Part shown: piece after piece, positions 452-35,700 of the stretch
How the letters are laid out: each line of letters starts with the position of its first letter
Position numbering within the stretch: position 1 is the first letter of the stretch
Program-made: the position numbers and the translations under genes
Virus record (IMG/VR): IMGVR_UViG_3300035698_010570
Coordinates: 1-36,620 of that record
Length of the DNA: 36,620 bases
Strand: one strand, 5' to 3'
Source: a virus
The notes under the pieces: generated by a model
The model's database searches: none
The model's input: only the letters and a program-made list of their open reading frames with translations
Told to the model about the DNA's origin: nothing

Positions 452-895
452 GGGGCTGACTGGTTTTGACCGCAGTGTAAATATTAATAAACAGTAGTGA
501 GTGATCACTTTAAATATCGTAGGTGAAATTTCTAAACGGAAATACAATGAGTACGCAGGAAACTGCACAGGAAGTAGCTAACATGAGTGTTGTTCACAAC
601 ATTCTTAACGGATCTGACGATCTAGTTGCACCAGTTGCAACAGTTAAGTTAGCAATGGCAGCATAATGCCAATGGTGAAAAAAGCATCGTAGTAACCATT
701 ATGTAGTAACTTATCACAGGATGCTTGATATTCTGGTATGTCCAGATAGACCCGAAGTACATTAGTATAGTGAAGCTGTATGATAAGTTAATTTAGTATG
801 AGTAACTAGTGTAGAAGAAAACTATAAATTGAAAAACTGTATAATTTATTAATAATCAAATTGTTGGGACAGGGGTTCGACTCCCCTCAGCTCCA
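452..895 (+). ncRNA. ssrA: Transfer-messenger RNA (tmRNA) with a 42-codon tag
   Basis: tmRNA frees stalled ribosomes and adds a degradation tag. The tRNA-like ends are clear: GGGGCTG (452-458) pairs over 7 bp with CAGCTCC (888-894), including the G3-U70 wobble that marks alanine charging. The T arm is AGGGG-TTCGACT-CCCCT (871-887). CCA is not encoded. The 5' end and the CAGGATGCTT region (717 on) resemble Bacteroidota tmRNAs. The context CTAAAC-GGA at 532-540 matches where Bacteroidota tmRNAs resume translation, so the tag frame is read from GGA at 538 to TAA at 664-666. It starts Gly-Asn-Thr-Met and ends Val-Lys-Leu-Ala-Met-Ala-Ala. A 9-bp helix, 708-716 with 781-789, is consistent with the usual pseudoknot region. 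Bacteroidota tags are about nine residues, so 42 is very long. The resume codon is inferred; the terminal AMAA and stop are seen. Confidence 0.93.
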
Positions 896-1073
896 CAGAC
901 TTCGCCGTCTAAAAAGCTGCGCCAGCAGGATATCTGGCAAATATAACATCATCCAAAGTTTTTAACACTTTTATAGATTTGGGAAAGGTTATGTATCAAA
1001 AGTGTAGTACATTGCAATTGATAAGGCTTGCATATATTATGTGAGCTTTTATCTAAATAAAAAATAAAATAAA
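896..1073 (+). other. Structured non-coding stretch between tmRNA and tRNA
   Basis: No convincing gene. Several hairpins are visible: AGAC/GTCT around TTCGCC (897-910), GCCAG/CTGGC (921-938), ACACTTTT/AAAAGTGT (965-972 with 998-1005), and a long one, 1020-1033 with 1039-1053, of 14 pairs (some G-U, one bulge) closing a 5-base loop. None is followed by a T run, so none looks like an intrinsic terminator. No T-arm consensus was found on either strand. It may hold processing signals for the flanking RNAs, decayed tRNA genes, or an unrecognised RNA. Confidence 0.4.
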
Positions 1074-11420: not shown

Positions 11421-12032
11421 ATGATTGATTTAAATAGTTTTTCAGACAATGGTTCTGATGTAGTAATTTTTAACGAAGGTAATGCAGGTAAAGTAAATAA
11501 TGTAGCAATTTCTGTTAAGAAAAAAAGTGCAGAAGACAATGCCAATGCACCTGATTATAAAATACATTACACACAAGAAAATGGTTCTGATGTAAACGAT
11601 GGTATTTATTACCCTCAAGATTCAGATAACAACCCAGCTTTTGTATTACAAAGGCTTGTTACAACGTTACACGCTGTAGATGCAGAATCTATAGGTGTAG
11701 CTTTACCAACTCTTCCTAATTACCCAGCAGCTGTAGATTTTCTAATGAAGAAAATTAACGAAGCAGGTAAAAAAGGACATAAAGTAAATGTATTTGTTAA
11801 TTATGGAACACAAGGTTATCCTAAGAGTTTTTTAACTGTTAGAAAAATTAATTTTGTAGAACCTTTTAACAAAGATGAAAATACAACTAGATTAAAACCA
11901 GCTAAAAGCACAGACGCAAATAAGTTAATGTATAATGACTTAATGTCTAGACCTCAGCCAGATAATGATGACGATGCTTTTGACACAGAGTCTACTGACT
12001 CTAAAGACGAAGCTAGTAATGATTTTTTCTAG
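11421..12032 (+). CDS. ssb: Single-stranded DNA-binding protein
   Basis: 203 residues. N-terminal two thirds are beta-rich with an OB-like composition (VAISVKKK, KVNVFVNYGTQGYPKSFLTVRKINF). From about 175 the chain is acidic (DNDDDAFDTESTDSKDE) and ends DFF, the acidic tail with aromatic tip that SSB proteins use to recruit partners. Sequence identity to bacterial SSB is not evident; phage SSBs often diverge. Ends in TAG TAG and is followed at once by a strong terminator. Confidence 0.75.
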   Translation: MIDLNSFSDNGSDVVIFNEGNAGKVNNVAISVKKKSAEDNANAPDYKIHYTQENGSDVNDGIYYPQDSDNNPAFVLQRLVTTLHAVDAESIGVALPTLPNYPAAVDFLMKKINEAGKKGHKVNVFVNYGTQGYPKSFLTVRKINFVEPFNKDENTTRLKPAKSTDANKLMYNDLMSRPQPDNDDDAFDTESTDSKDEASNDFF

Positions 12033-12046
12033 TAGGTCATAAATAT

Positions 12047-12069
12047 AGAGGGGGAAACCCCTCTTTTTT
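12047..12069 (+). terminator. Intrinsic terminator after ssb
   Basis: 7-bp stem AGAGGGG/CCCCTCT with GAAA loop, followed by a T run. The most GC-rich hairpin in its neighbourhood. It separates ssb from the primase-amidoligase unit. Confidence 0.92.
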
Positions 12070-12082
12070 ATTAAAAACAAAA

Positions 12083-13120
12083 ATGGTAGATTTAAATAAA
12101 CACGTATCTAAACCATTAGTAACTAAAGCGGTATTAGATATAGAATTAAAAGACAGTGAAATATATTGTTTTTACATGAATACTGATAGTATTAACTTAA
12201 ATTCAGCTATGAGTTCACCTCTAAGAGAAGATCCAACACCATCGTTTGGTTTTTTTTTAAATAAAAGAGGTAATATTATATATAATGATTTTGTAAATGG
12301 AGGTGGTGATTGTTATAAATTCGTAAAAGAATTTTTTGCATATTCACAATGGTATGATGTTTACAGTCAAATTGCAATTGATTTTAATTTAGATAAAAAG
12401 TACAAATGTAGTAATAATTTATTAAACAATGAAAATAAAAATAAAGTAAAGTATGACGCTAACATACAAATACTTAAAAAAAAGAAATGTAAAATATCAG
12501 TAAACAAAAGAATTTGGGAAGTTCACGATTTAAATTATTGGAATAAATTTAACATAAATAAAGTTATGTTAATAAAATACAGAGTTTTTCCATTAAAATA
12601 TATTTTTATAAATAATAAACCTATAGCAGCAGATAAAAATGCATATGTTTATATAGAAAGTAAAGATGGTTTAATAACACATAAGATATATCAACCTTAT
12701 AGTAAATTTAAATGGATAACAGACAATGATAATTCAGTATGGCAAGGTTGGGAACAACTTTCTTTAAATGGTAACATTTTAATCATAACAAAATCACTTA
12801 AAGATGTAATGTCTATAAAAAGTACAACAGGTTATGATGCAATAGCTTTACAAAATGAAAAAGCTAAACCAAAAGATAATATAATTGAACAATTAAAAGG
12901 TAGATTTACTAAAATTTTTATATTATTTGATAATGATTATGATAAAAAAGAAAACTGGGGTCAAATAAACGCCAAAGAAATATCTAGAAATCATATGATT
13001 ACTAATATAGTAATAAATAAAGAATATAAATCTAAGGATTTTTCTGATTTAGTTAATAATCATGGTAAAGATTTAGCAAAAGAAATATTAAATTCTAAAA
13101 TAAATAAAAAAGATGAGTAA
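12083..13120 (+). CDS. DnaG-like primase with Toprim domain
   Basis: 345 residues. The N-terminal part has SPLREDPTPSFG and NGGGDCYKF, the shape of a primase zinc-ribbon region that has lost its CHC2 cysteines. The Toprim part has ILIITKSLKDVMSI, where cellular primases have a Glu-Gly pair, and ILFDNDYD for metal binding; the TKSLKDVM form is, to my knowledge, a phage variant. Makes RNA primers for the polymerase and DnaB-like helicase encoded upstream. First gene of the long unit after the terminator; its end overlaps the cyclotransferase gene by 8 bases. Confidence 0.8.
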   Translation: MVDLNKHVSKPLVTKAVLDIELKDSEIYCFYMNTDSINLNSAMSSPLREDPTPSFGFFLNKRGNIIYNDFVNGGGDCYKFVKEFFAYSQWYDVYSQIAIDFNLDKKYKCSNNLLNNENKNKVKYDANIQILKKKKCKISVNKRIWEVHDLNYWNKFNINKVMLIKYRVFPLKYIFINNKPIAADKNAYVYIESKDGLITHKIYQPYSKFKWITDNDNSVWQGWEQLSLNGNILIITKSLKDVMSIKSTTGYDAIALQNEKAKPKDNIIEQLKGRFTKIFILFDNDYDKKENWGQINAKEISRNHMITNIVINKEYKSKDFSDLVNNHGKDLAKEILNSKINKKDE

Positions 13121-13499
13121 AAATATAAACATTAGTGTTTACGGAACATTAAGAACTGGTTATGGAAATCACAGAGTATTGGGTAATTCAAAATTAATTG
13201 GTGCTGGATGGACTAAAAATAAATATAAATTGACAGCAAATGGTATTCCTTTTGTTAATCCTAACGAGCAAGTTAGTAAAATTAGAGTAGAAGTTTATTC
13301 AGTTACACCTGATCAATTACCTACAGTAGATAGATTAGAAGGTTATGATCCTAGAGATCATGAAGGTTCTTGGTATAAAAGAACACCTATTGAAATAACT
13401 CTTGATACAGGAGAAGATGTAAAAGCTTCTATTTACTTTGGTGAAAACGAAGGTAAAACATTAATTGAATCTGGAGATTATGCCGATTATAGAAACTAA
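13113..13499 (+). CDS. Gamma-glutamylcyclotransferase-like enzyme (GGCT/AIG2 fold)
   Basis: 128 residues. VYGTLRTGYGNHRVL (9-23) is the substrate-binding YGTLR loop; RLEGY (74-78) holds the usual catalytic Glu (E76). Family members release gamma-glutamyl groups as 5-oxoproline or cleave gamma-glutamyl-amine links. Here it opens a run of amide-forming and amide-cleaving genes, which suggests removing or capping a gamma-glutamyl group on the pathway's product. Overlaps both neighbours (8 and 20 bases). Confidence 0.88.
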   Translation: MSKNINISVYGTLRTGYGNHRVLGNSKLIGAGWTKNKYKLTANGIPFVNPNEQVSKIRVEVYSVTPDQLPTVDRLEGYDPRDHEGSWYKRTPIEITLDTGEDVKASIYFGENEGKTLIESGDYADYRN

Positions 13500-13941
13500 A
13501 TTAATATATTCTCGTTCTAAAAGAAGAAAATCTGCTAAATCTTATATAATTGATCTTTTAAAAAATAGACCTAATACTTATAACGATAAAAAATTTACAG
13601 AAATTCAATGTCGCAGAAGTAAATATAGAACTATTTATGAAGTTTATTGTATTCTTAAAACTGAATATACATCTTTAACTTGGAAACGTTATTTAAGTAT
13701 AGTTTTTAGTTTAGTTGATTGTGAAGAAACAGCTATTAATTTATGGTATTGTTTTCATGTATCAGGTATAGTTTTTAATAGTAGTGTGTCAACAGATAAA
13801 GATGAAAATTTTCCTTTTTTAAAAAGAATAGGTAGTACATCATGGCATTCAGCGGAAAGAATTGAACAAACTGGTTTTAAACACAAATTTGCAAATTTAG
13901 AAAATTTAAACAAATATTATAAAAAATATAATGAAAAATAA
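13480..13941 (+). CDS. Unknown protein in the amidoligase cluster
   Basis: 153 residues from ATG 13480 (MPIIETKLIYSR). A TTG 15 bases upstream would add five residues but is less likely. Basic N-terminal third (SRSKRRKSAKSY), then a mostly helical body with aromatic residues (INLWYCFHVSG) and STSWHSAERI. No known domain. It overlaps both flanking genes (20 and 11 bases), so it is probably produced with them; it could be a substrate, carrier or accessory factor. Confidence 0.65.
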   Translation: MPIIETKLIYSRSKRRKSAKSYIIDLLKNRPNTYNDKKFTEIQCRRSKYRTIYEVYCILKTEYTSLTWKRYLSIVFSLVDCEETAINLWYCFHVSGIVFNSSVSTDKDENFPFLKRIGSTSWHSAERIEQTGFKHKFANLENLNKYYKKYNEK

Positions 13942-14815
13942 ATATACAAAATTTCGTCCTGTAATATACAGTAGGCATCCTTCTCACACTAATCTTAGAA
14001 GAAATAATAAGACAATTGAATTATTACCATTTCGTTCAGTAGTAAGATTAGGTTCTAGTACTGAATGTAAAGACACTATTGCAAATGGAGGTGATAGATT
14101 AGAATTAAATACTGTTGATGCAATTCGTAATAGTAGTAGTAAACTTCGCATGAAAAATTGTTTTCAAAACGCACAACCAAGTGTTAAATCAGCAGATTGG
14201 TATAGATGTAGTAATGATAATAATAATTTTTTATTGCAAACAAAAGCTGAAATAATAACAGTTTCTTTAGAAGATATGCCATTACCATTAGTTGCTAAAT
14301 CATTATATGGTAGTAGAGGTCAAGGTAATACTTTACTTAAAACTATTGATGAAATTAGAAATTATTTACGTTCAGGTGTCAATTTAGAAAATCGCATTTT
14401 TGAACGTTATTATAATTACTCAAGAGAATATAGACTTCACGTTGATGCAAATGGATGTTTTTATACTTGTCGTAAAATGATGAAAAGAGATACTCCTGAA
14501 GAAAATAAGTGGTATAGAAATGATGATAATTGTGTATGGATTCTTGAAAATAACGAAGCTTTTGATAAGCCTAGTAATTGGCAATCTATAATTGATGAAT
14601 GCGTAAAAGCTCTTAATTCAACAGGTTTAGATTTTGGTGCAATTGATCTTAGAATACAAAGTTCTACAGATAGAAATGGTAATATTAATGAAAATCCAGA
14701 TTTTATTATTGTAGAAATTAATTCTGCTCCATCATTTGGAGATATAACAGAAGAAACTTATATTAAACATATACCAGTAATGCTTAAAAATAAATATAAA
14801 ACTTTAAATAAATAA
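13931..14815 (+). CDS. ATP-grasp amide ligase
   Basis: 294 residues. ATP-grasp enzymes join a carboxylate to an amine using ATP through an acyl-phosphate. Seen here: LVAKSLYGSRGQGN (120-133, nucleotide-binding lysine and glycine-rich loop), ERYYNYSREYRLHV (158-171), LDFGAIDLRI (233-242), and VEINSAPSFG (261-270), whose E and N bind magnesium. The N-terminal 110 residues are less conserved and would bind the substrate. Close in plan to RimK/YheC-type ligases; the substrate cannot be read from sequence. Two bases before the next gene. Confidence 0.88.
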   Translation: MKNKYTKFRPVIYSRHPSHTNLRRNNKTIELLPFRSVVRLGSSTECKDTIANGGDRLELNTVDAIRNSSSKLRMKNCFQNAQPSVKSADWYRCSNDNNNFLLQTKAEIITVSLEDMPLPLVAKSLYGSRGQGNTLLKTIDEIRNYLRSGVNLENRIFERYYNYSREYRLHVDANGCFYTCRKMMKRDTPEENKWYRNDDNCVWILENNEAFDKPSNWQSIIDECVKALNSTGLDFGAIDLRIQSSTDRNGNINENPDFIIVEINSAPSFGDITEETYIKHIPVMLKNKYKTLNK

Positions 14816-14817
14816 AA

Positions 14818-15588
14818 ATGTCAAAAACAAAAACGTTAATTGGAATATTAGGTCATAATCATACTGGTAAATATCAACCAGGTTATGGTCAAAATGCAGC
14901 TTACGTACACTTTGCAAGAAGTTTTGATGCAGATGTAGTTATAATAGATGCTGCAAATGAAACTATATTACCAGTAGATTTATTAATATTACCAGGTGGA
15001 CGTGACGTTAATCCTTTACGATATGGTCAAAAACCACATTATATGACTGATAATCCTGATATGGAATATGAATCATTTTATGATGTAAATCTTGGTGCTA
15101 TTAATGGGTATATTGAACGTGCTAAACAAAATAAAACAGCAATTTATGGTATTTGTGCAGGTTTTCAAAATTTAAATGTCCACTTTGGTGGAAGTTTAAA
15201 TCAACATGTTCACAATGATAGATCTACTACTTGGAGAGGTGAATTAGTAGATGATTTAGAAACAGTTATTGATAATTTTCCAAAAGATTATTTAGGTGAA
15301 ATACTTATTTCTTCTAAAAAAGATAGATTAAATTATGTAAATAATGTTCCACGAAAATTTAAAACAAATTCTATACATCATCAAGCTATTTTTATAGACA
15401 ATTTATCTAATGATTTTTTACCATTAGCTTATGATGTCAAACATAAAAATATAGAATTTATGATTCACAAAGAATTACCTATTGCTGCAGAACAATCTCA
15501 CCCAGAAGAAAGATTTAACCCATTTGTTGCAATTGGAATTATTAACACATTATTAAATAGAATAGAAAATGAAAAAAGAAAAAATTAA
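14818..15588 (+). CDS. Class I glutamine amidotransferase / peptidase C26-like hydrolase, copy 1
   Basis: 256 residues. LILPGGRDVNPLRYG (56-70) forms the oxyanion region; the nucleophile is C113 in YGICAGFQNLN; H228 and E230 (SHPE) complete the triad, with NSIHHQA between. The plan matches gamma-glutamyl-GABA hydrolase (PuuD) type C26 enzymes, which cleave gamma-glutamyl amides, as well as free-standing amidotransferases. All three catalytic residues are present. Overlaps the next gene, its second copy, by 20 bases. Confidence 0.88.
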   Translation: MSKTKTLIGILGHNHTGKYQPGYGQNAAYVHFARSFDADVVIIDAANETILPVDLLILPGGRDVNPLRYGQKPHYMTDNPDMEYESFYDVNLGAINGYIERAKQNKTAIYGICAGFQNLNVHFGGSLNQHVHNDRSTTWRGELVDDLETVIDNFPKDYLGEILISSKKDRLNYVNNVPRKFKTNSIHHQAIFIDNLSNDFLPLAYDVKHKNIEFMIHKELPIAAEQSHPEERFNPFVAIGIINTLLNRIENEKRKN

Positions 15589-16216
15589 AATATTTACATT
15601 ATATGCATATCTTACTAATCAATATTTAGAATTTTTTAGTAATAAATATGAAATTGTAATAACAGAAGATTCTTCTGAAGAAGATATAAGCATTGCTTTA
15701 TTTACTGGTGGAGAAGATGTTAACCCTATTTATTATGATGAACAATTAGGTTCTAATACTTATATTAACGCTAAAAGAGATACGTTAGAAGAAGAAGCAT
15801 TTAATTCTTTAGCTCCTCATGTATTAAAAGTTGGTATATGTAGAGGTTCACAGTTTTTAACTGTAATGAGTGGTGGTAAATTAATACAACATATTACTGG
15901 TCACAGTAGAAGTCACAATGTTGTTGATATTGAAAATAATATTTTTGAAGTAACTTCTACCCATCATCAAATGATGTATCCATTTAATCTTAATAAAGAT
16001 AATTATGATATAATAGGAATTTCTCAAGATATTTTATCTGAAAAATATCTTAATGGTAATGATCAAGAAATTTTATTAGATAAAAATTTTAAAGAGTGTG
16101 AAATAGTGTATTATAAAAATACAAATAGCCTTGCTATACAAGGACATCCAGAGTTTAATCATTCAACATTAGAATTTAAAAACTATTGTTATAATTTAAT
16201 AGACAAATTACTATAA
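15569..16216 (+). CDS. Class I glutamine amidotransferase-like hydrolase, copy 2
   Basis: 215 residues, shorter and diverged from copy 1. TGGEDVNPIYY (46-56) parallels PGGRDVNPLRY in copy 1; nucleophile C91 in VGICRGSQFL; STHHQMM; triad H193 and E195 in QGHPEF. Both copies keep intact triads, so they probably act on different substrates or one supplies ammonia and the other trims. One base before the COOH-NH2 ligase gene. Confidence 0.86.
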   Translation: MKKEKIKIFTLYAYLTNQYLEFFSNKYEIVITEDSSEEDISIALFTGGEDVNPIYYDEQLGSNTYINAKRDTLEEEAFNSLAPHVLKVGICRGSQFLTVMSGGKLIQHITGHSRSHNVVDIENNIFEVTSTHHQMMYPFNLNKDNYDIIGISQDILSEKYLNGNDQEILLDKNFKECEIVYYKNTNSLAIQGHPEFNHSTLEFKNYCYNLIDKLL

Positions 16217-16217
16217 T

Positions 16218-17045
16218 ATGAATAATAAATATAATTACAATAATCTTACTATTGGATCTGATCCAGAAGTATTTGTTAGAGATTTTGAAACTAAAGAATT
16301 AGCTTCTATTATTGGAGTTTTTAATGCAGGTAAAAACGATCCTCTTGATATAGGAACAGGTTGTTTTGTTCAAGAAGATAATATACTTGCTGAATTTAAT
16401 ATTCCACCTTGTAAAACAAGAGAAGAATTTTTAAATTCAATAAATTATGCTAAATCTTACATTGAAATGTTTGTAGCACCTTTAGGTATGGAACTTCATT
16501 ATTCAAGTAGTGAAATTGCTACTGAAGAATTACTTCTTGATCCTAAAGCTCATGTTTTTGGATGTTCACCTTCTTATAACGCAATAACTGAATGTTCTTC
16601 AGATATTGCAGAAGAAGACACATCAGAATTAACTATGAGATCTTCTGGTTTTCACATTCATTATGGGTGGGACAACCCAACAGAAGATGAAAGAGATAGA
16701 TTATGTATGATGTTTGAATTAGCTGTATCATTACCTTTAATATTAGAAGATAATGATGATCATAATCGCAGATCATTATATGGTAAAATCGGGGATTGTA
16801 GAGATAAAGATTACGGAATAGAATGTAGGTCTTTAGGTGGTTACTTTTTAAAAAGTGATGATAGTATATTAAACGTATGGGATCGTTCCGTTATGGCTGT
16901 CAAAATGGCAGAAGAACTTGAAATTTCTAATGAAGATTTAAGAAAAGATATATTAAATTATATTAATCCTGAATCAGATTTAGAAATTGAAAACGTAAAT
17001 GAATTAATTGAAAAATACAAAATAAAAGAATATGTTAATATTTAA
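16218..17045 (+). CDS. Glutamine-synthetase-like COOH-NH2 ligase (type 2)
   Basis: 275 residues. Family signatures: IGSDPEVFV (12-20) with E17, EDNILAEFNIPP (53-64) with E59, FHIHYGW (145-151) and RRSLYGKIGDCR...YGIECRS (184-205), the acid, histidine and arginine residues that bind ATP, metal and substrate in this GS/GCS-fold group. These enzymes form amide bonds on peptides or small molecules and are known mostly from phage and bacterial gene clusters. It overlaps the class II amidotransferase gene by 14 bases. Confidence 0.85.
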   Translation: MNNKYNYNNLTIGSDPEVFVRDFETKELASIIGVFNAGKNDPLDIGTGCFVQEDNILAEFNIPPCKTREEFLNSINYAKSYIEMFVAPLGMELHYSSSEIATEELLLDPKAHVFGCSPSYNAITECSSDIAEEDTSELTMRSSGFHIHYGWDNPTEDERDRLCMMFELAVSLPLILEDNDDHNRRSLYGKIGDCRDKDYGIECRSLGGYFLKSDDSILNVWDRSVMAVKMAEELEISNEDLRKDILNYINPESDLEIENVNELIEKYKIKEYVNI

Positions 17046-19152
17046 TATAGTAATTATAATGTTAATTATGCAAATGCTATTAAACATTTTTAGTAAAACA
17101 CAAAAAAAAGATGTTTTTAGTTGTGGATTATTTGGATGGACTGGTGAAAATCCATCTTCATTTGATATGGATAAACTTAAAATATTAGGTGTTTTAAATG
17201 AAGAAAGAGGTACTAATTCTTGTGGTTTATATATAAATGAAAAATTACATAAAGGTGACAGTATTGGTACAAACAATGAAGCTTTATTTAGAAATTTATT
17301 TATTAATGAAAGTATCCAAAAGTACAAAAAAAAAGTAGGTAACGTAATTATAGGTCACACTAGAAATGCATCAAGAGGAGGTATTAAAAGTGTAAATAAT
17401 ACACATCCTTTTATGTTTGATATTGGTGATGGTTTTAATTTTATAGGTGCTCATAACGGAACTTTAGATAATCACAAATTTTTAGCTGAAAAATATGAAG
17501 TAAATCTTAAAGATGATAAACATAGAGAAAAAGTAGATAGTGAAATTTTATTAGAAATAATATCTAAAGCTAATGTAAAAAAACCTGATTATATAAAAGT
17601 TTTACAAGATTACAAAGGTGCTGCTGCATTGGTTTTACATTCACAAAAAGAAAAAGAAACTGTTTTTGTATTTAGAGGTAAATCTAAAAAATGGGAATAT
17701 AATACTAGTGTTGCTGAAGAAGAAAGACCATTGCATTATTGGCAAGAATCTAAAAATAGTATATATTATTCTTCTACAGTAGCTCCTTTAGAGCTTATAT
17801 CAGGTAAAAGACATACTGAAAAAGATTCTAATATATATACTTTTGAAACAAATATACTTTATAAAATAAAAAATGGTGTAATTGAAGCTTTGTTTAATAT
17901 TGATAGAACTAAAAATGAAAAATACGATTCAATGTATGAATTTAATCGTAAAAAAGAAGAAAAAAACAGAAAAAATGTTGATAAAACTAAAAATAACAAT
18001 AAATCAGTAAAAAATTTAGTTGTTTATAAATCAAAACAACCACCTGTTAATTCTAAATTATTTATTAGTGCAAATAAAATACCAAATGATATTCAAAATG
18101 TTATTTCACCTTTAGAAAGTAAAATTGGAAAAAGTATTTTTTATGAGAAAATAATTAGGAGCAAAGAAATGGTTAATTATAATAAAGTTATTTTTGAAAA
18201 TTTTAGATATAAACAAAACAACGAGCTTGTTAAAGATGGTATTTATGTTTATAGTGAAAATAATGGTTTTATATATGTTAGTAATTTAATACATGAAGCT
18301 AAAAATTTAATTAATAATTTTTCATTTTTTGATAAAGTTAATTCTAAAAATATTGTTTTAGGAAAAGTTGATTTAACTTTGTTTTACATAGTTAATGGTA
18401 TTATGTTACTTACTGAATTAGATTATGAAACTATTAATTATAAAGGATCAGAAAACTTTACTCTTGAAGAATATTCGCACATGAGTGTTTATCCTATAAC
18501 TTCTTATTATGAAAATTCATTTTTAAAAAATAAAAAAGAAGATTTATTAGAATTTAATGCTCATTTATTTAAAAATAAAATTTTAAGAAAAGGAAAAGTA
18601 GTACAAAGTGAATCTGTACAAGCAATAGGTTCTACTTATATTTATAGTATAAGAAAAGGTATTTGTGTTGCTAGTTTTTATAATCATATTTTTAATAGTA
18701 TAAAAAATAATAAAATAATTTTAAGTAATAAAAAAGTTATTGACAATGCTTATTTTGAAGACAAAAGTTTTGAAAAAAATATAAATAAACTTGTTAATAA
18801 AAATAATAAATTTGAAGAAGATTTTCAAGATTATGAATCAGGTATAGATTATTCAAATGTTGACGAATTTGAAGACGAAAATGACGACATGAAAGTTGCA
18901 TTAGATGATTTTAACACTTCAATAAAAGAATCTTTAGATTTAGGAATAGATTTTGTTAGTAAATATTCTGATAACAATGAATTAGCAACTAATGTTTTTA
19001 ATTTTTGCGAAAATTTAGAAGGTGTTTATAATCCGTTAAGTAAATGGATTGATAATATTTTAAATTCAAAAGAAATAAAAAATGATGATGATGAATATTT
19101 TGATGAAGATGAAATGGAATTTATTAATAGAAACAACAAATTTAACCAATAG
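17032..19152 (+). CDS. Large class II glutamine amidotransferase (Ntn fold) with unknown C-terminal region
   Basis: 706 residues. The N-terminal domain has C31 in SCGLFGW, GHTRNAS (108-114) and GAHNGTLDN (139-147), the nucleophile, Arg and Asn-Gly features of GATase II, which frees ammonia from glutamine. Ntn enzymes need the Cys at the mature N-terminus, but here it follows about 30 residues including a hydrophobic run (4-20). In-frame ATGs at 17059, 17068 and 17074 all leave extra residues, so cleavage would be needed. From about 310 on there is no recognised domain; an acidic, coiled stretch lies at 620-700. Ends in TAG. Start site uncertain. Confidence 0.82.
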   Translation: MLIFNIVIIMLIMQMLLNIFSKTQKKDVFSCGLFGWTGENPSSFDMDKLKILGVLNEERGTNSCGLYINEKLHKGDSIGTNNEALFRNLFINESIQKYKKKVGNVIIGHTRNASRGGIKSVNNTHPFMFDIGDGFNFIGAHNGTLDNHKFLAEKYEVNLKDDKHREKVDSEILLEIISKANVKKPDYIKVLQDYKGAAALVLHSQKEKETVFVFRGKSKKWEYNTSVAEEERPLHYWQESKNSIYYSSTVAPLELISGKRHTEKDSNIYTFETNILYKIKNGVIEALFNIDRTKNEKYDSMYEFNRKKEEKNRKNVDKTKNNNKSVKNLVVYKSKQPPVNSKLFISANKIPNDIQNVISPLESKIGKSIFYEKIIRSKEMVNYNKVIFENFRYKQNNELVKDGIYVYSENNGFIYVSNLIHEAKNLINNFSFFDKVNSKNIVLGKVDLTLFYIVNGIMLLTELDYETINYKGSENFTLEEYSHMSVYPITSYYENSFLKNKKEDLLEFNAHLFKNKILRKGKVVQSESVQAIGSTYIYSIRKGICVASFYNHIFNSIKNNKIILSNKKVIDNAYFEDKSFEKNINKLVNKNNKFEEDFQDYESGIDYSNVDEFEDENDDMKVALDDFNTSIKESLDLGIDFVSKYSDNNELATNVFNFCENLEGVYNPLSKWIDNILNSKEIKNDDDEYFDEDEMEFINRNNKFNQ

Positions 19153-19178
19153 AGTTAACATTAAAAAAATAAAATGAA

Positions 19179-20693
19179 ATGATAGTTAAAACTTACAAAG
19201 GTAAGAATTTAGAAAAAAGTAAATGTCGTAAAATACAAAATGATTATTACGAAATAGGTGATAACAACATAGAAGGAAGTGGTGGATGTTACAAAGTAAA
19301 CGGTAGATATCATAGATTTAATAATGGTCTTATTGAATTTGATCATGAAAATAAATCTTACGTTTTAGTAAATAAACAACTTTTAACAAGGGGTATAGTA
19401 AGTATAAATAAAGATGATTCTTTTATATTAGGATTTTTTTCACCTAATCCTACTAAAAACATAAAAGTTGTTGTAGACAATTTTAATGTAACTAATTGTA
19501 TAGATGAAGAAACATTAGGTAGTAAGTATTCTGAACATTTAAATACAGGTAATTTTTATAAAAAAGATGAAATGTCAAAATCTTCTTTTAATAAAATAGG
19601 AAAAGCACCTGTAGATAAAAATTCGTTAAACTACGATAGTAGATTTGTAACTAAAATGATTGAAAAATCATATAATCAGTATTACAAAGTTCCTAGTGTT
19701 AAAAATCAAATGGTAGAAGAATTAGGTATTTTATTAGAAAAAAATAAAATAACTTTTGGTCTTGAATTTGAAACTTCAAAAGGTTATTTACCTGATAGAT
19801 TGTGTTATAAACACGGTATAGTAGCATTAAGAGATGGTAGTATATCAGGTTTAGAATATGTTACAGTTCCTTTAGATGGTAGAAAAGGTTTATATAATGT
19901 AATGGAAATATGTAAATTATTAAAAAAAAGAACTGATTATGATTTTACATGTGCTTTACATTTACATTTAGGAGGTCTTAAAAGAGATGTTGACAATATT
20001 TTATCTATAAATAATATAGCAAATATGCTAGAAGAAGATATGTATTCTTTACAACCATTGTCTAAAAAAATTTCTACTGATTACGGTAAAAATAAAAATT
20101 ACAGTGGTCCAATGAATTGTACTCCTTTAAGTATTATGATGTCTGACACAGATAAACCTTTACCTAAACTTAAAAAATTAGCTTTTGATAGTTTATTTAA
20201 GCATTTATCTGGTGGATATTCATTTTCAGATTTTGGTAATGATTTAGAAAAAATACAAAATCATCCTAAAGACCCTAATGGTACATCTAAATGGAACATT
20301 AGAAGTCGTTACGTATGGTTTAACATGATTCCTATTATATTTACTAACAAACAAACTGTAGAATTTAGACAACATAATAATACTTTTGACTTTTTTAAAA
20401 TTTACAATTTTATGTTAAGTTCAGCAATAATGGTTATGGCAGCTAACAAATTAGAAGATAAATTTAATAATCCTAAATTTTTAAAATCTTTTAGTAAATT
20501 AAATAGTAAATATGAAACATTAGTAAAACTTACTAAAAGTGAATTCCCAGAACTTACAGATTCTCTTTGTGAAAATAATATAAAATATTTTAAAGAAAGA
20601 GTTAAAGTTATGAAAAAAATGAATATTAATGACCCTAAAGGTCTTAATGAACATAAATTTTATGATGATTTTACAAATACTGTAGATGAATAA
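19179..20693 (+). CDS. Amidoligase (Amidoligase_2-like, GS/GCS fold)
   Basis: 504 residues. An N-terminal beta-rich region (GGCYKVNGRYHRFNNG, 35-50) is followed by the catalytic domain: FGLEFETSKG (193-202; E196, E198), LRDGSISGLEYVT (218-229), CALHLHLGG (258-266) and QTVEFRQHNNTFD near 380. This acid/His pattern is typical of the amidoligase group that partners class II amidotransferases. It is thus the second GS-fold ligase of the cluster, of a different subfamily from that at 16218. Its end overlaps the UDG gene by 8 bases. Confidence 0.82.
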   Translation: MIVKTYKGKNLEKSKCRKIQNDYYEIGDNNIEGSGGCYKVNGRYHRFNNGLIEFDHENKSYVLVNKQLLTRGIVSINKDDSFILGFFSPNPTKNIKVVVDNFNVTNCIDEETLGSKYSEHLNTGNFYKKDEMSKSSFNKIGKAPVDKNSLNYDSRFVTKMIEKSYNQYYKVPSVKNQMVEELGILLEKNKITFGLEFETSKGYLPDRLCYKHGIVALRDGSISGLEYVTVPLDGRKGLYNVMEICKLLKKRTDYDFTCALHLHLGGLKRDVDNILSINNIANMLEEDMYSLQPLSKKISTDYGKNKNYSGPMNCTPLSIMMSDTDKPLPKLKKLAFDSLFKHLSGGYSFSDFGNDLEKIQNHPKDPNGTSKWNIRSRYVWFNMIPIIFTNKQTVEFRQHNNTFDFFKIYNFMLSSAIMVMAANKLEDKFNNPKFLKSFSKLNSKYETLVKLTKSEFPELTDSLCENNIKYFKERVKVMKKMNINDPKGLNEHKFYDDFTNTVDE

Positions 20694-21390
20694 GGATATT
20701 ATTAATTTTAAAAAAACTTTTGGTAACTGGGTTAATGATGAAAGTTTTCTATATATAATTAAATCAGATTATTTTAGAAAACTTATTGTTTTTTTAAACC
20801 AAGTTTATAATAAAAGACAAATATTTCCTTTAAAAAAAGATATATTTAAAGTTTTTAGATATGTCCCTTATAATAATATTAAAGTGGTGATATTAGGAGA
20901 TTCTCCTTACCCTAATGAATCAGCAAACGGCTTTGCTGTAGCAAATACAGTTGATACACTTAGGGTGTCACCTTCTTTATTTAAAATAAGAGAATGTATA
21001 GAAAAAACTACTAATACTTTAATTGTTGATTTTGATGTAACTTTGCAAAATTGGGCTTTACAAAATGTTTTATTGTTAAATACATCATTAACTATTCAAG
21101 CAGGTATGGTAAATCCACACAAGCATATTTGGGATGAATTTATTAAAGTTACTATTAATACTATTATAGATAATAATCCAGGTGTAATATTTTGTTTATG
21201 GGGAAACGATGTTATGAGAACTTTTCACAAAGTTGTTCCAGAAAACAAATTAAAATTTTGTTATGCTTTAAAATGTATACATCCTGAACTTGCTGCAAAA
21301 CGAAATGAAGAATGGAATTGTAATCATTTTAAACAAATTAACGAATTAATAAAAGAAAACAATGGAAAAGAATTTTGTATTAAATGGTAA
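20686..21390 (+). CDS. ung: Family 1-like uracil-DNA glycosylase with altered active-site loop
   Basis: 234 residues. Family 1 plan: VVILGDSPYP (67-76) for the catalytic loop, LLLNTSLTIQAG (129-140) with the uracil-binding Asn, HIWDEF, VIFCLWGND, and IHPELAA (198-204) with H199. In the canonical GQDPYH loop the third residue is the catalytic Asp; here the loop is GDSPYP, so that position is Ser and Asp moves one place forward. It may be active with a shifted residue, act on another base, or only bind DNA. Last gene of the primase-amidoligase unit. Confidence 0.85.
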   Translation: MNKDIINFKKTFGNWVNDESFLYIIKSDYFRKLIVFLNQVYNKRQIFPLKKDIFKVFRYVPYNNIKVVILGDSPYPNESANGFAVANTVDTLRVSPSLFKIRECIEKTTNTLIVDFDVTLQNWALQNVLLLNTSLTIQAGMVNPHKHIWDEFIKVTINTIIDNNPGVIFCLWGNDVMRTFHKVVPENKLKFCYALKCIHPELAAKRNEEWNCNHFKQINELIKENNGKEFCIKW

Positions 21391-21715
21391 TAAGTTAATT
21401 GCTGAATTTATGGGTTGGGAAAAAAAAGGATTAGTTTATACTACTCCTCACAATAGACCTTATTTAGCTGTAGATAGTAACATGTATGAAACAAATAAAG
21501 CTAGACTAGATGATTTTAAATTTCATGAATCATGGGATTGGTTAATGCCTATAATTCAAAAAATTGAAAGGTTAGATACACTAGATAAAGATAAGGATTT
21601 CAATAAACAATTGGATAGAGTTATATGTAAATTTATTTATACAGATATTAAAACAATGTATAAAGCAGTAATTAAATTTATTAAATGGTATAATGAAAAC
21701 AACAAAAGTAACTAG
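21362..21715 (+). CDS. Conserved phage protein of unknown function
   Basis: 117 residues. IAEFMGWE near the start and FHESWDWLMPIIQKIE in the middle recall a small protein common in Bacteroidota phages and prophages without known function. Starts within the end of ung (29-base overlap, different frame). Trp are all TGG. Ends in TAG and overlaps the next small gene by 23 bases. Confidence 0.75.
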   Translation: MEKNFVLNGNKLIAEFMGWEKKGLVYTTPHNRPYLAVDSNMYETNKARLDDFKFHESWDWLMPIIQKIERLDTLDKDKDFNKQLDRVICKFIYTDIKTMYKAVIKFIKWYNENNKSN

Positions 21716-21833
21716 AGTAGAAATAATAGATCATAATGGTAGAAGTTATGTAAATATGAATTGTAGTATTGATGAAATACAATTACAAGATAATAATAGA
21801 ACTATGAAAATATTTCTAACTAAACAAAAATAA
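21693..21833 (+). CDS. Small hypothetical protein
   Basis: 46 residues, MKTTKVTRVEIIDHNG then beta-type segments; starts inside the preceding gene. Twelve bases after its stop the RusA gene begins. No family recognised. Confidence 0.5.
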   Translation: MKTTKVTRVEIIDHNGRSYVNMNCSIDEIQLQDNNRTMKIFLTKQK

Positions 21834-21845
21834 AAATGAAATAAT

Positions 21846-22223
21846 ATGATGTTATTTTGCGATGGCTCAGTGCCATCAAGTAAAAATGGACGCAGATGAA
21901 CTGGTAGACATTTTATAGCTTCTAAAGCTACTAAAAAATGAAAAACAAACACTGCAGAATGGTGGAAAGATAATAAAGATGCTTTCCACCAGATGATAGA
22001 AGGTAAAGAAAAACCTTATAAAATAGGGGTACATTTCATAAGAGGTACTCATCATAAATATGATTGGGTAAATCCTATTCAAACAATTCAAGATGAGATG
22101 ACTCATGCTGGATGGATAGATGATGACAACATTACAGAAATGGTTCCCTTTCCTTTTAAAATTAAAGGAAAATACACTGGGTATAATAAAGAAAAACCTG
22201 GTTTTTATTTAAAAGTATATTAA
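21846..22223 (+). CDS. rusA: RusA-like Holliday-junction resolvase; two in-frame TGA
   Basis: 125 residues with TGA as Trp at codons 18 and 32 (21897, 21939). It resolves four-way DNA junctions formed in replication and recombination. Support: VPSSKNGR near the start (the RusA P-S-x-N segment), KYDWVNP (71-77) and GWIDDDNITEMVPFP (89-103), the Asp residues that bind metal in this family. Four other Trp are TGG. If TGA stopped, only a 17-residue peptide would be made. It starts at the first of two tandem ATGs. Confidence 0.82.
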
Positions 22224-32726: not shown

Positions 32727-35700
32727 TTATTTAGCAGAATTTTCAAGAAAATTATAAAGTTCTTTTGGGTCACGTTCTGTTTGTGCAATCATTGGTATTA
32801 ACTTTTTAAATTTAATCCAAGATTTTAATTCACCTCTATTTTTACCATTTTCATATTCTTCATCAATACTCCAAGGCATTATTTGAGTCATAAAAGAATA
32901 AGTTTTTTCTAAAGTGTTAAGTGAAACTGCAGGTGATCTAAACACTCTAAGATTTTCACGTATATCGTAAAATTGCATAAATTCTGATTGTTGTCTTCTA
33001 AATATGTAAGCTAATGTAAATAATAGATCATCATCATCTTCTTCAGCTGCTGCATATGTTAACATTGCTGCTGCTGCCATTATACCTGTTATCATAAGTT
33101 CAGTTACTGTTTTTCTAACGTTAGATCTTTCCATATCAGACATTTCTTTCCAGTTTTCAGTAGCTAATTGTAATTTAAAACTAGATACAGCTGGAAAGAC
33201 AGAATGTCTCATAAATCTAATAAAGCTAGTGTAAGTACCTTCATCAAATCTTTTCATTTCATAATCATAAATTTTTTGTTCATCTGTTAAATCTTTTGAT
33301 TCAATTGTAGAATGCATAACACCTGCGTACCTACGTTTATAAGAACTTATCATCCATTTTCTAAACATCATAAATAGTTTACCCCACCATGCTCTTTCTA
33401 TATGTGCTTGCAATTTAGAATCATATTGACCGTGTAATTTAATAATTAATTTTCTTATTAATTGTTGATGATGTATTTCACCAACTTCTCTTATTGGCTT
33501 AGAACTATGGGAACTAAATTCAGCATGTTTGTTTATTTCAACACTTGATACACCGTCTTTATCAGTTTTCATTTCATAAGCTTCATACAAAGACATTGCT
33601 TCTTTTTTAGTAACTACTTTACCATTTTTGTTTATAAATTTACCATCTTTGTTTTTAACTTTAGTAGCAGTCATTATAGCAATCATTAATGTTGATTGAG
33701 CTTCATGTTCCCCCATTGCATTTAAAGAATGCATTGTTCCAGAATGAGCTAATGATCTTAATTTACTTTTATTTTCAAAAGCATTTTTAATAATGTTAAA
33801 ATCACCCATTGTATCAAAAAGTTCATTTAATATATTAATTTTACTAGTATTAATAGTACTACCTACATCGTTTAATATTTTAGGTAATTCTTTCATATAT
33901 ATACCTTGTGCTTTTACTAAATCTTTTAAAGTAAATATATCAGCACCAGCTGCTTCAATCATATTTTGAAGTTTAGCTTGTACAACGTTAGGTACAGCAG
34001 TCATTGCATTTAAAGCAAGTTGTAAATCAGCTGTATAACCAGCTATAGAATTTGAAACTTGATTTATACTAACTCCCATAAATTTACCTGCATATACATC
34101 ACTTATACCATAAATTCTGTTTTCAATCATTGATTGAACTTTTTTGTATAAATTAGAATCTTTACCAGGCATTTTTACAAGATCTTCTTCTGATATAGTA
34201 CCATCTTTTTTAAACATTGCAACAAATGCTTTTGTAGTAGAATTTCTTTTAATAACTTGTGAACCACTTATTACATGTAACAACACATCAGCTTCTGCTT
34301 CTATTTCTTTTTTGTTATGATAATTTTCGGACATCATAGTGTCCATAGCAAGCATAGTACCCAAATCATATGATTGATCTTTTGCTTCTAATTTATTTCT
34401 ATAGTAAACTGGAATAGAATGAATAGGTTTATTATTAAGATCAGTACGAGTACGTTCGTACATTGTATCTTCTTCTTCATTAATTACATTACCATATGTA
34501 TCTTCATCTTTTCTTGATTTAAATACGTCACCAACGTTAGTTTTAATTGCGTTTAAAGCTTGACCACTTAATATTTTATCACTAGTTGATTGGGTTATAC
34601 CTCCCATTTTAATAAATATAGGACCTTTTTCTATTGGTTGATTAAATAAACTATTTATACCTACTGTTTTTTTATTATTTTCTTTTAACTGTTGAACATA
34701 AGAATCATAATATTCTTTTTGAACACCTGTTAAACTTTTATATTTAGGATTTAACCATTTAGAAATAGGTATTCCTTTTTTAAAGTTAGCTTTAATCCAA
34801 TCTTTCTTTTCTTTTGAAACTTTTTTATGTTCTTTTTCTCCGTATTCTAACTTACTTAATTTATTTTGAAAATTTTCAAGTATATCATTAAATTCACCTT
34901 TGTATTTAGTTATAAAATATTGATTATCTTTAGTAATATCAAGCATAAAATCATAACGTTTTTTATTAGAAGAACCTTGAAAATTAGCTTTTCTTTCTCT
35001 TACTGCTATTTTATTACGTTGAATAATAGAAGCTTTTCTTGTTTTTGCTTCTACAGTGTCTATTTTTTCGCTTAATATGCTAATTAAAGGATGGTCTATT
35101 AGTTTTTCACTTGAAAGTTGTAAATCAAGACTGCTGATATCCATATTAATAATGTCAAGACCTTTTCTTATTCTACTTCTTTTTTCAGCTTCTATAACTT
35201 CCATGTTTTCATTCATTTTATTGAAAACATATTCATCTTTAGTTATACCATAAGGCATTTCATTTCTATAATCAATTTTATATTGATCTTGATATTCAGT
35301 ATTTACTCTATCAAATTTTATAGCTAATGGTTCAGTTAAAGCATCTCTCATTTTATTATCTAATGCTTTACTAACTTTTTTATATTTTCCTACTACAAAA
35401 GTTAAAGTTTTATCTATTTTATTATAATCTTCTTGTGTAATTTTATCATACTTTTTTAAATTTATAAGTACGTTAGCAATAGCATCATTATTAGAAAATA
35501 CAGCCATATAAGCTTTAAATCTACTTAAATAATTAAAATCAGGATTTTCTTTATTTTCTAAACCTTTTTCTAAACCTATTAATTCAGTTACTGAAAATTC
35601 AAGATATTCAAGTATTGCTTTTTCTTTAGATTTATCTTGTAATTCTTTAAGTCTTTCTTGAATTTCTCTATATTTTTCTTTATATTTACCACCTTTAGCA

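What the first reader, a model, noticed from the sequence alone, without database searches (positions are those of the whole stretch)
12083..21390. Compact amidoligase pathway fused into the replication transcript
Seven enzymes of amide chemistry plus one unknown protein lie in one overlapping run: GGCT, unknown, ATP-grasp, two C26-type amidotransferases, GS-like COOH-NH2 ligase, class II amidotransferase, Amidoligase_2-like ligase. Three ligases from two folds and three glutamine hydrolases suggest stepwise building and trimming of a gamma-glutamyl or other amide chain. Such families are known from comparative genomics, but this full combination placed between primase and UDG may be new. Candidate roles: host envelope peptide modification against competing phages, modification of phage protein, or a novel metabolite or DNA-linked group.
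Basis: partly seen in the sequence, partly recalled or inferred. Interest (0 to 1): 0.9.

Follow-up and report, generated by a model that had tools for sequence, protein, structure and literature searches.

The report
Known phage amide-enzyme gene module
The gene cluster is real, but it is a widespread and already described set of phage enzymes that build and trim amide bonds; what they make is still unknown, and in this phage and some relatives one of the enzymes carries a predicted membrane anchor, which hints at work on the cell envelope.

Summary
In detail: between primase and UDG lie GGCT, a RimK-like ATP-grasp ligase, two C26 proteins, two GS/GCL-fold ligases (CNL, AL2), a class II amidotransferase (GAT2) and one unknown, with active-site residues kept. 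The novelty claim fails. Cellulophaga phage phi14:2 (Crassvirales) has the same order without the C26 genes and the unknown, and cr108_1 nearly so; LUZ24-, phiEco32- and PA11-type phages carry the core set in other orders. Each of four core families occurs in 19 of 19 records tested with curated profiles; all four occur in 69 of 80 IMG/VR loci, on one strand. Cell-wall change against superinfection was already proposed (Iyer 2009, seen only as cited). The unknown gene is probably not part of the module. New as far as my searches reach: in the window's clade a hydrophobic pro-segment of about 30 residues precedes GAT2's catalytic cysteine (0 of 63 controls), and GAT2 neighbours AL2 in 78 of 82 loci. 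I favour glutamine-dependent amidation or gamma-glutamylation of a membrane-proximal envelope precursor (about 0.4). DNA modification is less likely: a relative with the module showed no Nanopore modification motif, though another group is unexplainedly restriction-resistant.

The parts
12083..13120 (+). DNA primase: upstream flank of the module, not part of it
   Evidence: phrog_12622 4.7e-70; same place in phi14:2 and cr108_1
13113..13499 (+). GGCT / gamma-glutamylamine cyclotransferase-like enzyme (trimming)
   Evidence: Pfam GGACT 3.1e-20; phrog_2520 in 17 of 19 records; YG(T/S)L and LEG motifs kept
13465..13941 (+). Small unknown protein (ATG at 13480); clade-specific gene inside the run, probably not part of the module
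   Evidence: no Pfam, PHROG or phage-collection hit; only the window's own kind, L003/L099 and L004/L100 in IMG/VR; distant homologues off the module in L028 and L038
13931..14815 (+). ATP-grasp amino-acid ligase, RimK / cyanophycin-synthase-like
   Evidence: phrog_2599 in 19 of 19 records; PDB profile hits alpha-L-glutamate ligase 1.7e-12, RimK, cyanophycin synthase; D239, E262, N264 invariant
14818..15588 (+). C26-type protein (class I glutamine amidotransferase / gamma-glutamyl hydrolase), copy a
   Evidence: Pfam Peptidase_C26 1.9e-21; Cys and HPE invariant; nearest solved Lin1909, amidotransferases, PuuD
15569..16216 (+). C26-type protein, copy b (the copy closer to phrog_7218)
   Evidence: phrog_7218 1.9e-36; the family is in 11 of 19 records
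16218..17045 (+). CNL: COOH-NH2 ligase, glutamate-cysteine-ligase / YbdK-like fold
   Evidence: Pfam PF14395; phrog_3815 in 19 of 19; AlphaFold2 model pLDDT 94.1, best match YbdK Z 15.7, plant GCL Z 14.3
17032..19152 (+). GAT2: class II glutamine amidotransferase with N-terminal hydrophobic pro-segment and long C-terminal part
   Evidence: GATase_6 in 19 of 19; R111, N142, G143, D169 invariant
17032..17121 (+). Hydrophobic pro-segment (30 residues) before the catalytic Cys31 (codon 17122-17124); inferred N-out/C-in membrane anchor
   Evidence: 14 of 25 non-canonical GAT2 rows over KD 1.9 (13 distinct prefixes), L110 at 1.59, L109 by eye; 0 of 63 canonical genes have such an open upstream frame; no topology program was run
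19179..20693 (+). AL2: Amidoligase_2 with an extra N-terminal beta-rich domain (about residues 1-190, 19179-19751)
   Evidence: Pfam PF12224; phrog_2443 in 19 of 19; model pLDDT 93.0, residues from about 185 to 503 match YbdK, Dop and GCL at Z about 12
20686..21390 (+). Uracil-DNA glycosylase: downstream flank, not part of the module
   Evidence: Pfam UDG 2.9e-9; same place in phi14:2 and cr108_1

Best explanation
This is the crAss-phage version of a conserved phage module of amide-bond enzymes, not a new assembly. Shown here: four enzymes (ATP-grasp, CNL, GAT2, AL2) travel together in one strand block, often with GGCT and a C26 enzyme, and their active sites look intact. Inferred: GAT2 splits glutamine and feeds ammonia to its usual neighbour AL2, which makes a primary amide on a carboxylate; CNL makes a gamma-glutamyl-type bond and the ATP-grasp enzyme adds an amino acid; C26 and GGCT remove gamma-glutamyl groups as editing or recycling. 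Inferred with less certainty: the acceptor is an envelope precursor met at the inner face of the cytoplasmic membrane, such as a peptidoglycan stem peptide, because GAT2 of the window's clade starts with a hydrophobic segment followed in most by lysines or arginines (catalytic domain then cytoplasmic), and every bacterial host named in the rows I read is Gram-negative. The changed envelope would then hinder superinfecting phages or their lytic enzymes. GAT2 must be cut before Cys31 to be active, probably by itself.
For: Co-occurrence with curated profiles, 19 of 19 records for each core family, GGCT 17 of 19, C26 11 of 19 (18 of the 19 are the window or were picked through CNL). IMG/VR: 69 of 80 CNL loci hold all four (38 of 41 with enough flank), 69 of 69 on one strand. 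Anchored on AL2 instead: 11 of 15 loci hold all four; 7 of the 15 were already in the CNL set, and of the 8 new ones 4 hold all four and 6 hold CNL and GAT2. Phage-collection searches give similar record counts and host tallies: window CNL 317, LUZ24 ATP-grasp 308, LUZ24 AL2 302 of 50,697. AL2-GAT2 adjacent in 78 of 82 loci, in both main gene orders. Ligase folds; ATP-grasp relatives. Hydrophobic GAT2 prefix. ATP-grasp, glutamine amidotransferase and YtfP-like proteins of the relative SU10 seen by mass spectrometry of lysate (PMC4281155; its CNL and AL2). The envelope / superinfection proposal is in print (PMC10580990 citing Iyer 2009).
Against: No product, substrate or phenotype is known. The membrane prefix is missing from most relatives: none of the 54 rows of the other GAT2 branch was scored as prefixed, and within the 29-row branch 15 lack it, so it cannot be essential to the module. 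If the prefix is cut off at the Cys, the mature enzyme leaves the anchor. The window's own AL2 finds only 5 phage records, so its link to the LUZ24-type AL2 rests on profiles. Eleven of 80 CNL loci lack one or more core genes, three of them (L024, L042, L088) with enough flank. Nearness to replication genes would fit a nucleic-acid role. The restriction resistance of Gordonclarkvirinae, which carry the module, is unexplained (PMC11990801). No signal-peptide or topology predictor was run.
Confidence: 0.42

Rival explanations
1. The module makes a soluble gamma-glutamyl or amidated metabolite that blocks a host enzyme or a defence pathway, or protects the cell during infection; C26 and GGCT tune its level.
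For: The chemistry equals that of small-molecule pathways: GCL/YbdK and gamma-glutamyl-amide synthetase folds, PuuD among C26 relatives, GGCT. Listed among early gene products in SU10.
Against: A hydrophobic prefix on GAT2 in one clade is hard to explain. No transporter is named among the annotated neighbours in the 15 GenBank records viewed, but unannotated genes were not examined for this.
Confidence: 0.27
2. The module tags proteins (host or phage) with amino acids, as RimK does with S6 and PafA with Pup.
For: ATP-grasp closest to alpha-L-glutamate ligases and RimK; AL2 core matches Dop at Z 12.3, tied with YbdK; the R2K ATP-grasp family was proposed to modify host proteins (PMC4431377).
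Against: GAT2, C26 and GGCT act on small gamma-glutamyl compounds in their known relatives (general knowledge). No tag protein was looked for; small unknown genes lie among the module in several phages (for example), so this is not excluded.
Confidence: 0.14
3. The module hypermodifies phage DNA with an amide-linked group.
For: A primase or primase/helicase gene lies within about 3 kb of a module gene in 9 of 15 GenBank records viewed. Gordonclarkvirinae, which carry it, are remarkably restriction-resistant without a known pathway (PMC11990801; its authors point to dCTP deaminase and a nucleotidyltransferase, not to this module).
Against: Pseudomonas phage Rembedalsseter carries the core genes and GGCT and native against amplified Nanopore signal showed no modification motif (PMC11780129). 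DNA of phage tf, same module, was digested with HaeIII (PMC3517423).
Confidence: 0.1
4. The genes are unrelated cargo that merely sits together.
For: AL2-like genes without the other core genes in 2 of 15 loci (L113, L114), and CNL without the other core genes in L040, L042, L044.
Against: 69 of 80 loci with all four in several gene orders, 19 of 19 records.
Confidence: 0.03

Closest known systems
Amidoligase module of Cellulophaga phage phi14:2 and crAssphage cr108_1 (Crassvirales, Steigviridae, Asinivirinae)
   Same: Same order of shared genes between primase and UDG; CNL 47% and AL2 43% identical to phi14:2; phi14:2 GAT2 has the same kind of hydrophobic prefix
   Different: phi14:2 has no C26 and no unknown gene; cr108_1 has one C26, other genes in between, no GGCT match and a GAT2 that starts MCG
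Amidoligase / ATP-grasp / GAT-II module of phiEco32, LUZ24, tf, PA11 and CW02 type phages (Iyer et al. 2009)
   Same: Same four core families, GGCT in most, often near primase/helicase
   Different: LUZ24 order CNL-phrog_4877-AL2-GAT2-ATPG; no AL2N domain found there; no hydrophobic GAT2 prefix; phrog_4877 and the AL2 N-domain never in one locus
gamma-Glutamyl amide metabolism (PuuA/PuuD, GmaS, GGACT) and glutathione-type synthesis (GshA + ATP-grasp)
   Same: Folds and reaction types of ligases and hydrolases
   Different: Sequence identity about 9-14% to solved ligases; substrates unknown; combined with a class II GAT and a second GS-fold ligase
MurT-GatD and AsnB/LtsA peptidoglycan amidation (recalled, no call)
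   Same: Glutamine-dependent amidation of a carboxylate, the kind of reaction proposed for AL2 plus GAT2
   Different: Different ligase folds (Mur ligase, AsnB synthetase domain); cellular, not phage enzymes

Membership tests
Phage amidoligase module (phiEco32/LUZ24 type) | COOH-NH2 ligase (PF14395 / phrog_3815) | tested here: met
Phage amidoligase module (phiEco32/LUZ24 type) | Amidoligase_2 (PF12224 / phrog_2443) | tested here: met
Phage amidoligase module (phiEco32/LUZ24 type) | ATP-grasp ligase (phrog_2599) | tested here: met
Phage amidoligase module (phiEco32/LUZ24 type) | Class II glutamine amidotransferase | tested here: met
Phage amidoligase module (phiEco32/LUZ24 type) | GGCT in the same block (frequent, not constant, member) | tested here: met
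Phage amidoligase module (phiEco32/LUZ24 type) | Function in cell-wall modification | not testable with these tools
   published only as a suggestion, seen as a citation; Iyer 2009 itself not held
Crassvirales, Steigviridae/Asinivirinae-like phage | Shared gene order with phi14:2 from DnaB-like gene through ThyX, Sak4, primase and module to UDG and exonuclease | tested here: met
Crassvirales, Steigviridae/Asinivirinae-like phage | Capsid, portal and terminase phylogeny | not tested
   capsid, portal and terminase genes were not sought
Class II (Ntn) glutamine amidotransferase | Arg, Asn-Gly and Asp of the active site, and the CG nucleophile motif | tested here: met
Class II (Ntn) glutamine amidotransferase | Catalytic Cys at the N terminus of the mature protein | tested here: inconclusive
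   Cys is residue 31 after a hydrophobic segment; needs processing, which was not tested
DNA hypermodification pathway | Modified nucleoside in virion DNA | not testable with these tools
   published Nanopore data of a relative negative; restriction resistance of another group unexplained

The most novel reading that the evidence does not exclude
In crAss-type phages the module is tethered to the inner face of the cytoplasmic membrane through a membrane-embedded pro-segment of GAT2 that must be removed to free the catalytic cysteine. This would be a zymogen-like switch that turns on amidation of a lipid-linked envelope precursor only at the membrane: a phage pathway that rewrites the peptidoglycan or other envelope chemistry of Gram-negative hosts from within.
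Probability: 0.18. Interest if true: 0.75.

Novelty: new member of a known kind. Interest (0 to 1): 0.42.

Why it matters
A block of four amide-chemistry enzymes recurs in hundreds of phage records, from E. coli and Pseudomonas phages to marine and gut crAss-like phages, yet I found no product or experimental function in the listings and passages I could search. The steady AL2-GAT2 pairing and the membrane pro-segment turn 'unknown amidoligase' into testable statements about which enzymes work together and where. A proven envelope or metabolite role would explain a large set of 'auxiliary' phage genes at once.

Tried and rejected
AL2 N-terminal domain as a fused form of phrog_4877 (the gene before AL2 in LUZ24-type phages): profile comparison gave probability 0.1-0.2%, and 25 of 97 AL2 loci have neither, so rejected. 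Unknown protein 13465-13941 as a pathway part: disfavoured on distribution; it was not folded. Near DNA matches of 12000-22000 in phages: none. Plasmid relatives of the ATP-grasp protein at E 1e-5: none. Bacterial genomes: no relative of LUZ24 CNL and two MAG contigs with the crAss CNL alignment (L115, L116); these scans use a few short patterns and see close relatives only. Sequence profiles of CNL and AL2 found no solved structure at E 1; only the models did, and AL2 had no Foldseek match at E 0.001 or better. Lipoprotein or signal-peptide reading of the GAT2 prefix: disfavoured by me, without a predictor, because lysines or arginines follow the hydrophobic part in most (not in L108) and the residue before Cys is Y, N, F or L in several. 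A search for restriction digests of phiEco32-type DNA returned unrelated papers. The passages of the Durham collection paper that I searched name no phage of this kind.

Limits of the counts: 80 of 397 IMG/VR relatives were kept by the tool and the set holds near-copies; my local profiles were built from the panel, the window included. Of the 19 records four are IMG/VR contigs close to the window (two of them, L003 and L005, nearly alike, and L002 nearly the window itself). L109 was scored wrongly by the prefix scripts and read by eye; L110 is below my cut (1.59); both were put among the prefixed rows by hand. Nine non-canonical GAT2 rows (L008, L011, L012, L017 twice, L034, L046, L062, L086) have no Met-started prefix and probably use other starts. 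The trees are quick ones with long branches. Host statements rest on the rows shown (40 to 60 of about 300 records per search) and on tallies whose tail is not listed; PMC10580990 mentions amidoligase and GATase genes in a mycobacteriophage.


Full report
What is there. The run 13113-20693 on the + strand holds GGCT, a small unknown, an ATP-grasp ligase, two C26-type proteins, a COOH-NH2 ligase (CNL), a class II glutamine amidotransferase (GAT2) and an Amidoligase_2 protein (AL2), between a primase and a uracil-DNA glycosylase. The active-site residues expected for each family are conserved across distant relatives.

Whose phage. The window is a 36,620-base virus record. A 66.7-kb IMG/VR contig has nearly identical proteins over the region compared (L002). 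From a DnaB-like gene through ThyX, Sak4, primase and the module to UDG and exonuclease the order matches Cellulophaga phage phi14:2, a member of Crassvirales (Steigviridae, Asinivirinae). The polymerase, ThyX, Sak4 and ribonucleotide reductase genes fit. Capsid and terminase genes were not sought.

Is the combination new? No. phi14:2 reads primase-GGCT-ATP-grasp-CNL-GAT2-AL2-UDG; cr108_1 reads primase-x-ATP-grasp-x-x-C26-CNL-GAT2-AL2-UDG. LUZ24, ECBP2, Salmonella 7-11, PA11, CW02, LAh_9, Vp_R1, QDWS535, RHph_N3_13, tf, a podovirus of Manatee Spring and a Leptolyngbya phage carry the core families in other orders. Searching 19 records (window, four IMG/VR contigs, 14 GenBank phages) with curated profiles gave ATP-grasp 19, GATase_6 19, Amidoligase 19, CNL 19, GGCT 17 and C26 11 of 19. 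Thirteen of the 14 GenBank records had been chosen by a CNL hit and one by an AL2 hit, so the CNL figure is partly by construction.

Wider survey. The CNL alignment found 397 relatives in IMG/VR, of which the tool kept 80. With profiles built from the panel, 69 of 80 loci have all four core genes. Among loci with at least 5 kb before and 7 kb after CNL it is 38 of 41 (the exceptions are L024, L042 and L088). All 69 are on one strand, with a median span of 4.8 kb. From the other side, an AL2 alignment found 15 loci: 11 hold all four, 13 hold CNL and GAT2, and 2 (L113, L114) hold AL2 without the other core genes. Seven of these 15 contigs were already in the CNL set; of the 8 new ones 4 hold all four and 6 hold CNL and GAT2. 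Three phage-collection searches gave similar totals and host tallies: window CNL 317 records, LUZ24 ATP-grasp 308 and LUZ24 AL2 302 of 50,697. The window's own AL2 finds only 5 records, since AL2 is divergent. Every bacterial host named in the rows shown is Gram-negative, but most records are not listed.

Two main forms. CNL-AL2-GAT2-ATPG, the LUZ24 form with phrog_4877 between CNL and AL2 in most, is read in 42 of 86 non-redundant loci; ATPG-CNL-GAT2-AL2, the crAss form, in 16 of 86; the rest are other orders or partial. AL2 and GAT2 are neighbours in 78 of 82 loci with both, against 54 of 83 for CNL-AL2 and 4 of 75 for ATP-grasp-AL2. I infer that GAT2 feeds ammonia to AL2.

The folds. An AlphaFold2 model of CNL (pLDDT 94.1) matches YbdK (Z 15.7, rmsd 3.4, 228 aligned) and plant glutamate-cysteine ligase (Z 14.3), then bifunctional glutathione synthetases, glutamine synthetases and PafA. 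AL2 (pLDDT 93.0) has a GS-superfamily core from about residue 185, matching YbdK, Dop and glutamate-cysteine ligase at Z about 12, all tied; Foldseek alone gave E 1.5e-3 at best. Its first 190 residues were barely tested. The ATP-grasp profile hits alpha-L-glutamate ligases, RimK and cyanophycin synthase; C26 hits Lin1909, other glutamine amidotransferases and PuuD; GGCT hits YtfP and AIG2-like proteins; GAT2 hits PurF and GlmS.

The membrane pro-segment. Class II amidotransferases need the catalytic cysteine at the mature N terminus (general knowledge). In the window the cysteine is residue 31, behind a hydrophobic segment and lysines. Among 25 GAT2 rows without a canonical Met-Cys start, 14 (13 distinct prefixes) have a Met-started prefix with Kyte-Doolittle mean above 1.9 over 17 residues; L110 (1.59) and L109 (misread by the script, seen) look alike; nine have no such prefix. 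Of 63 canonical genes none has an open upstream frame of that kind, and one would if stops were ignored. The prefixes are 26 to 31 residues long (L109 aside). On a GAT2 tree built without the prefix, the 14 rows that I labelled as prefixed (L109 and L110 included) all fall in one 29-row branch that holds the crAss-type loci, with 7 changes of the label (at least 3 forced); the other 54 rows have none. A CNL tree gives 6 changes. So the anchor is a trait of one branch, gained or lost repeatedly. The basic residues after the hydrophobic part suggest a cytoplasmic catalytic domain (inference; no topology program was run).

The unknown protein. It has no Pfam, PHROG or phage-collection relative. 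By a pattern scan IMG/VR holds it only in the window's own kind, L003/L099 and L004/L100, beside the module; my profile also finds it in L028 and L038, almost 5 kb upstream of the module's GGCT. In L028 a second GGCT gene lies about 1.2 kb from it. I do not count it as a pathway member.

What is in print. Iyer et al. 2009 is not held. PMC10580990 (passages read) says that amidoligase and GATase were suggested, citing that paper, to modify the cell wall and so prevent superinfection in phiEco32. The passages shown of PMC3517423, PMC3890496, PMC6209634, PMC4431377 and PMC7824862 name the genes or related families without testing them. PMC4281155 (passages) lists ATP-grasp, glutamine amidotransferase and YtfP-like proteins of phage SU10 among those found by mass spectrometry of PEG-concentrated lysate, so the module is expressed there. 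My literature searches (listings) showed no experimental role; they cover open-licence papers only.

DNA or not. Pseudomonas phage Rembedalsseter carries CNL, phrog_4877, AL2, GAT2, ATP-grasp and GGCT shortly before primase/helicase. Its paper reports no DNA modification motif by native against amplified Nanopore sequencing (PMC11780129, passages). Phage tf DNA was digested with HaeIII (PMC3517423, passage). Against this, Gordonclarkvirinae, which carry the module (ECBP2; BASEL phages with CNL), are remarkably resistant to restriction systems without a known pathway (PMC11990801, passages); its authors point to a dCTP deaminase and a nucleotidyltransferase. I hold DNA modification possible but unlikely (0.1).

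Verdict. A real, probably active and widespread phage module, already known in genomes and already given a speculative envelope role. The window adds a member, and this study adds the AL2-GAT2 pairing count, evidence against the unknown protein as a partner, and the membrane pro-segment of GAT2. Product and target remain open.

Noticed in passing
window 452-898 (+): A tmRNA gene (RF00023, 58.1 bits, tag ATVKLAMAA by ARAGORN). In one search over the cut-off in 4 of 12 records (window and the contigs of L002, L028 and L038) and just below it (46 of 47 bits) in phi14:2: crAss-like phages with their own tmRNA.
   Followed up: partly
L003 1790-3293, L005 2055-3558, L004 937-3358 and 4048-5778: ThyX (and in L004 also the Sak4-like gene) aligns in two parts separated by about 0.4 to 1.3 kb, as by an intron or homing insertion; the window copies are unbroken.
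   Followed up: no
window 32727-36491 (-): A 1254-residue ORF on the opposite strand at the end of the window with only a weak match to phrog_37402 of unknown function.
   Followed up: no
L028 1753-2199, L038 573-1007: Distant homologues of the small unknown protein outside the amide module; the window's copy matches no Pfam or PHROG family.
   Followed up: partly
L010 1993-4556, L013 17012-20150, L016 1-3676: Ribose-phosphate pyrophosphokinase and nicotinamide (or nicotinate) phosphoribosyltransferase genes lie next to or a few kb from the module in three phages of different groups.
   Followed up: no
window 19179-19751 (+): N-terminal beta-rich domain of AL2, detected in 22 of 97 AL2 loci, crAss-type and a Leptolyngbya phage among them; no family named for it; not folded alone.
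   Followed up: partly
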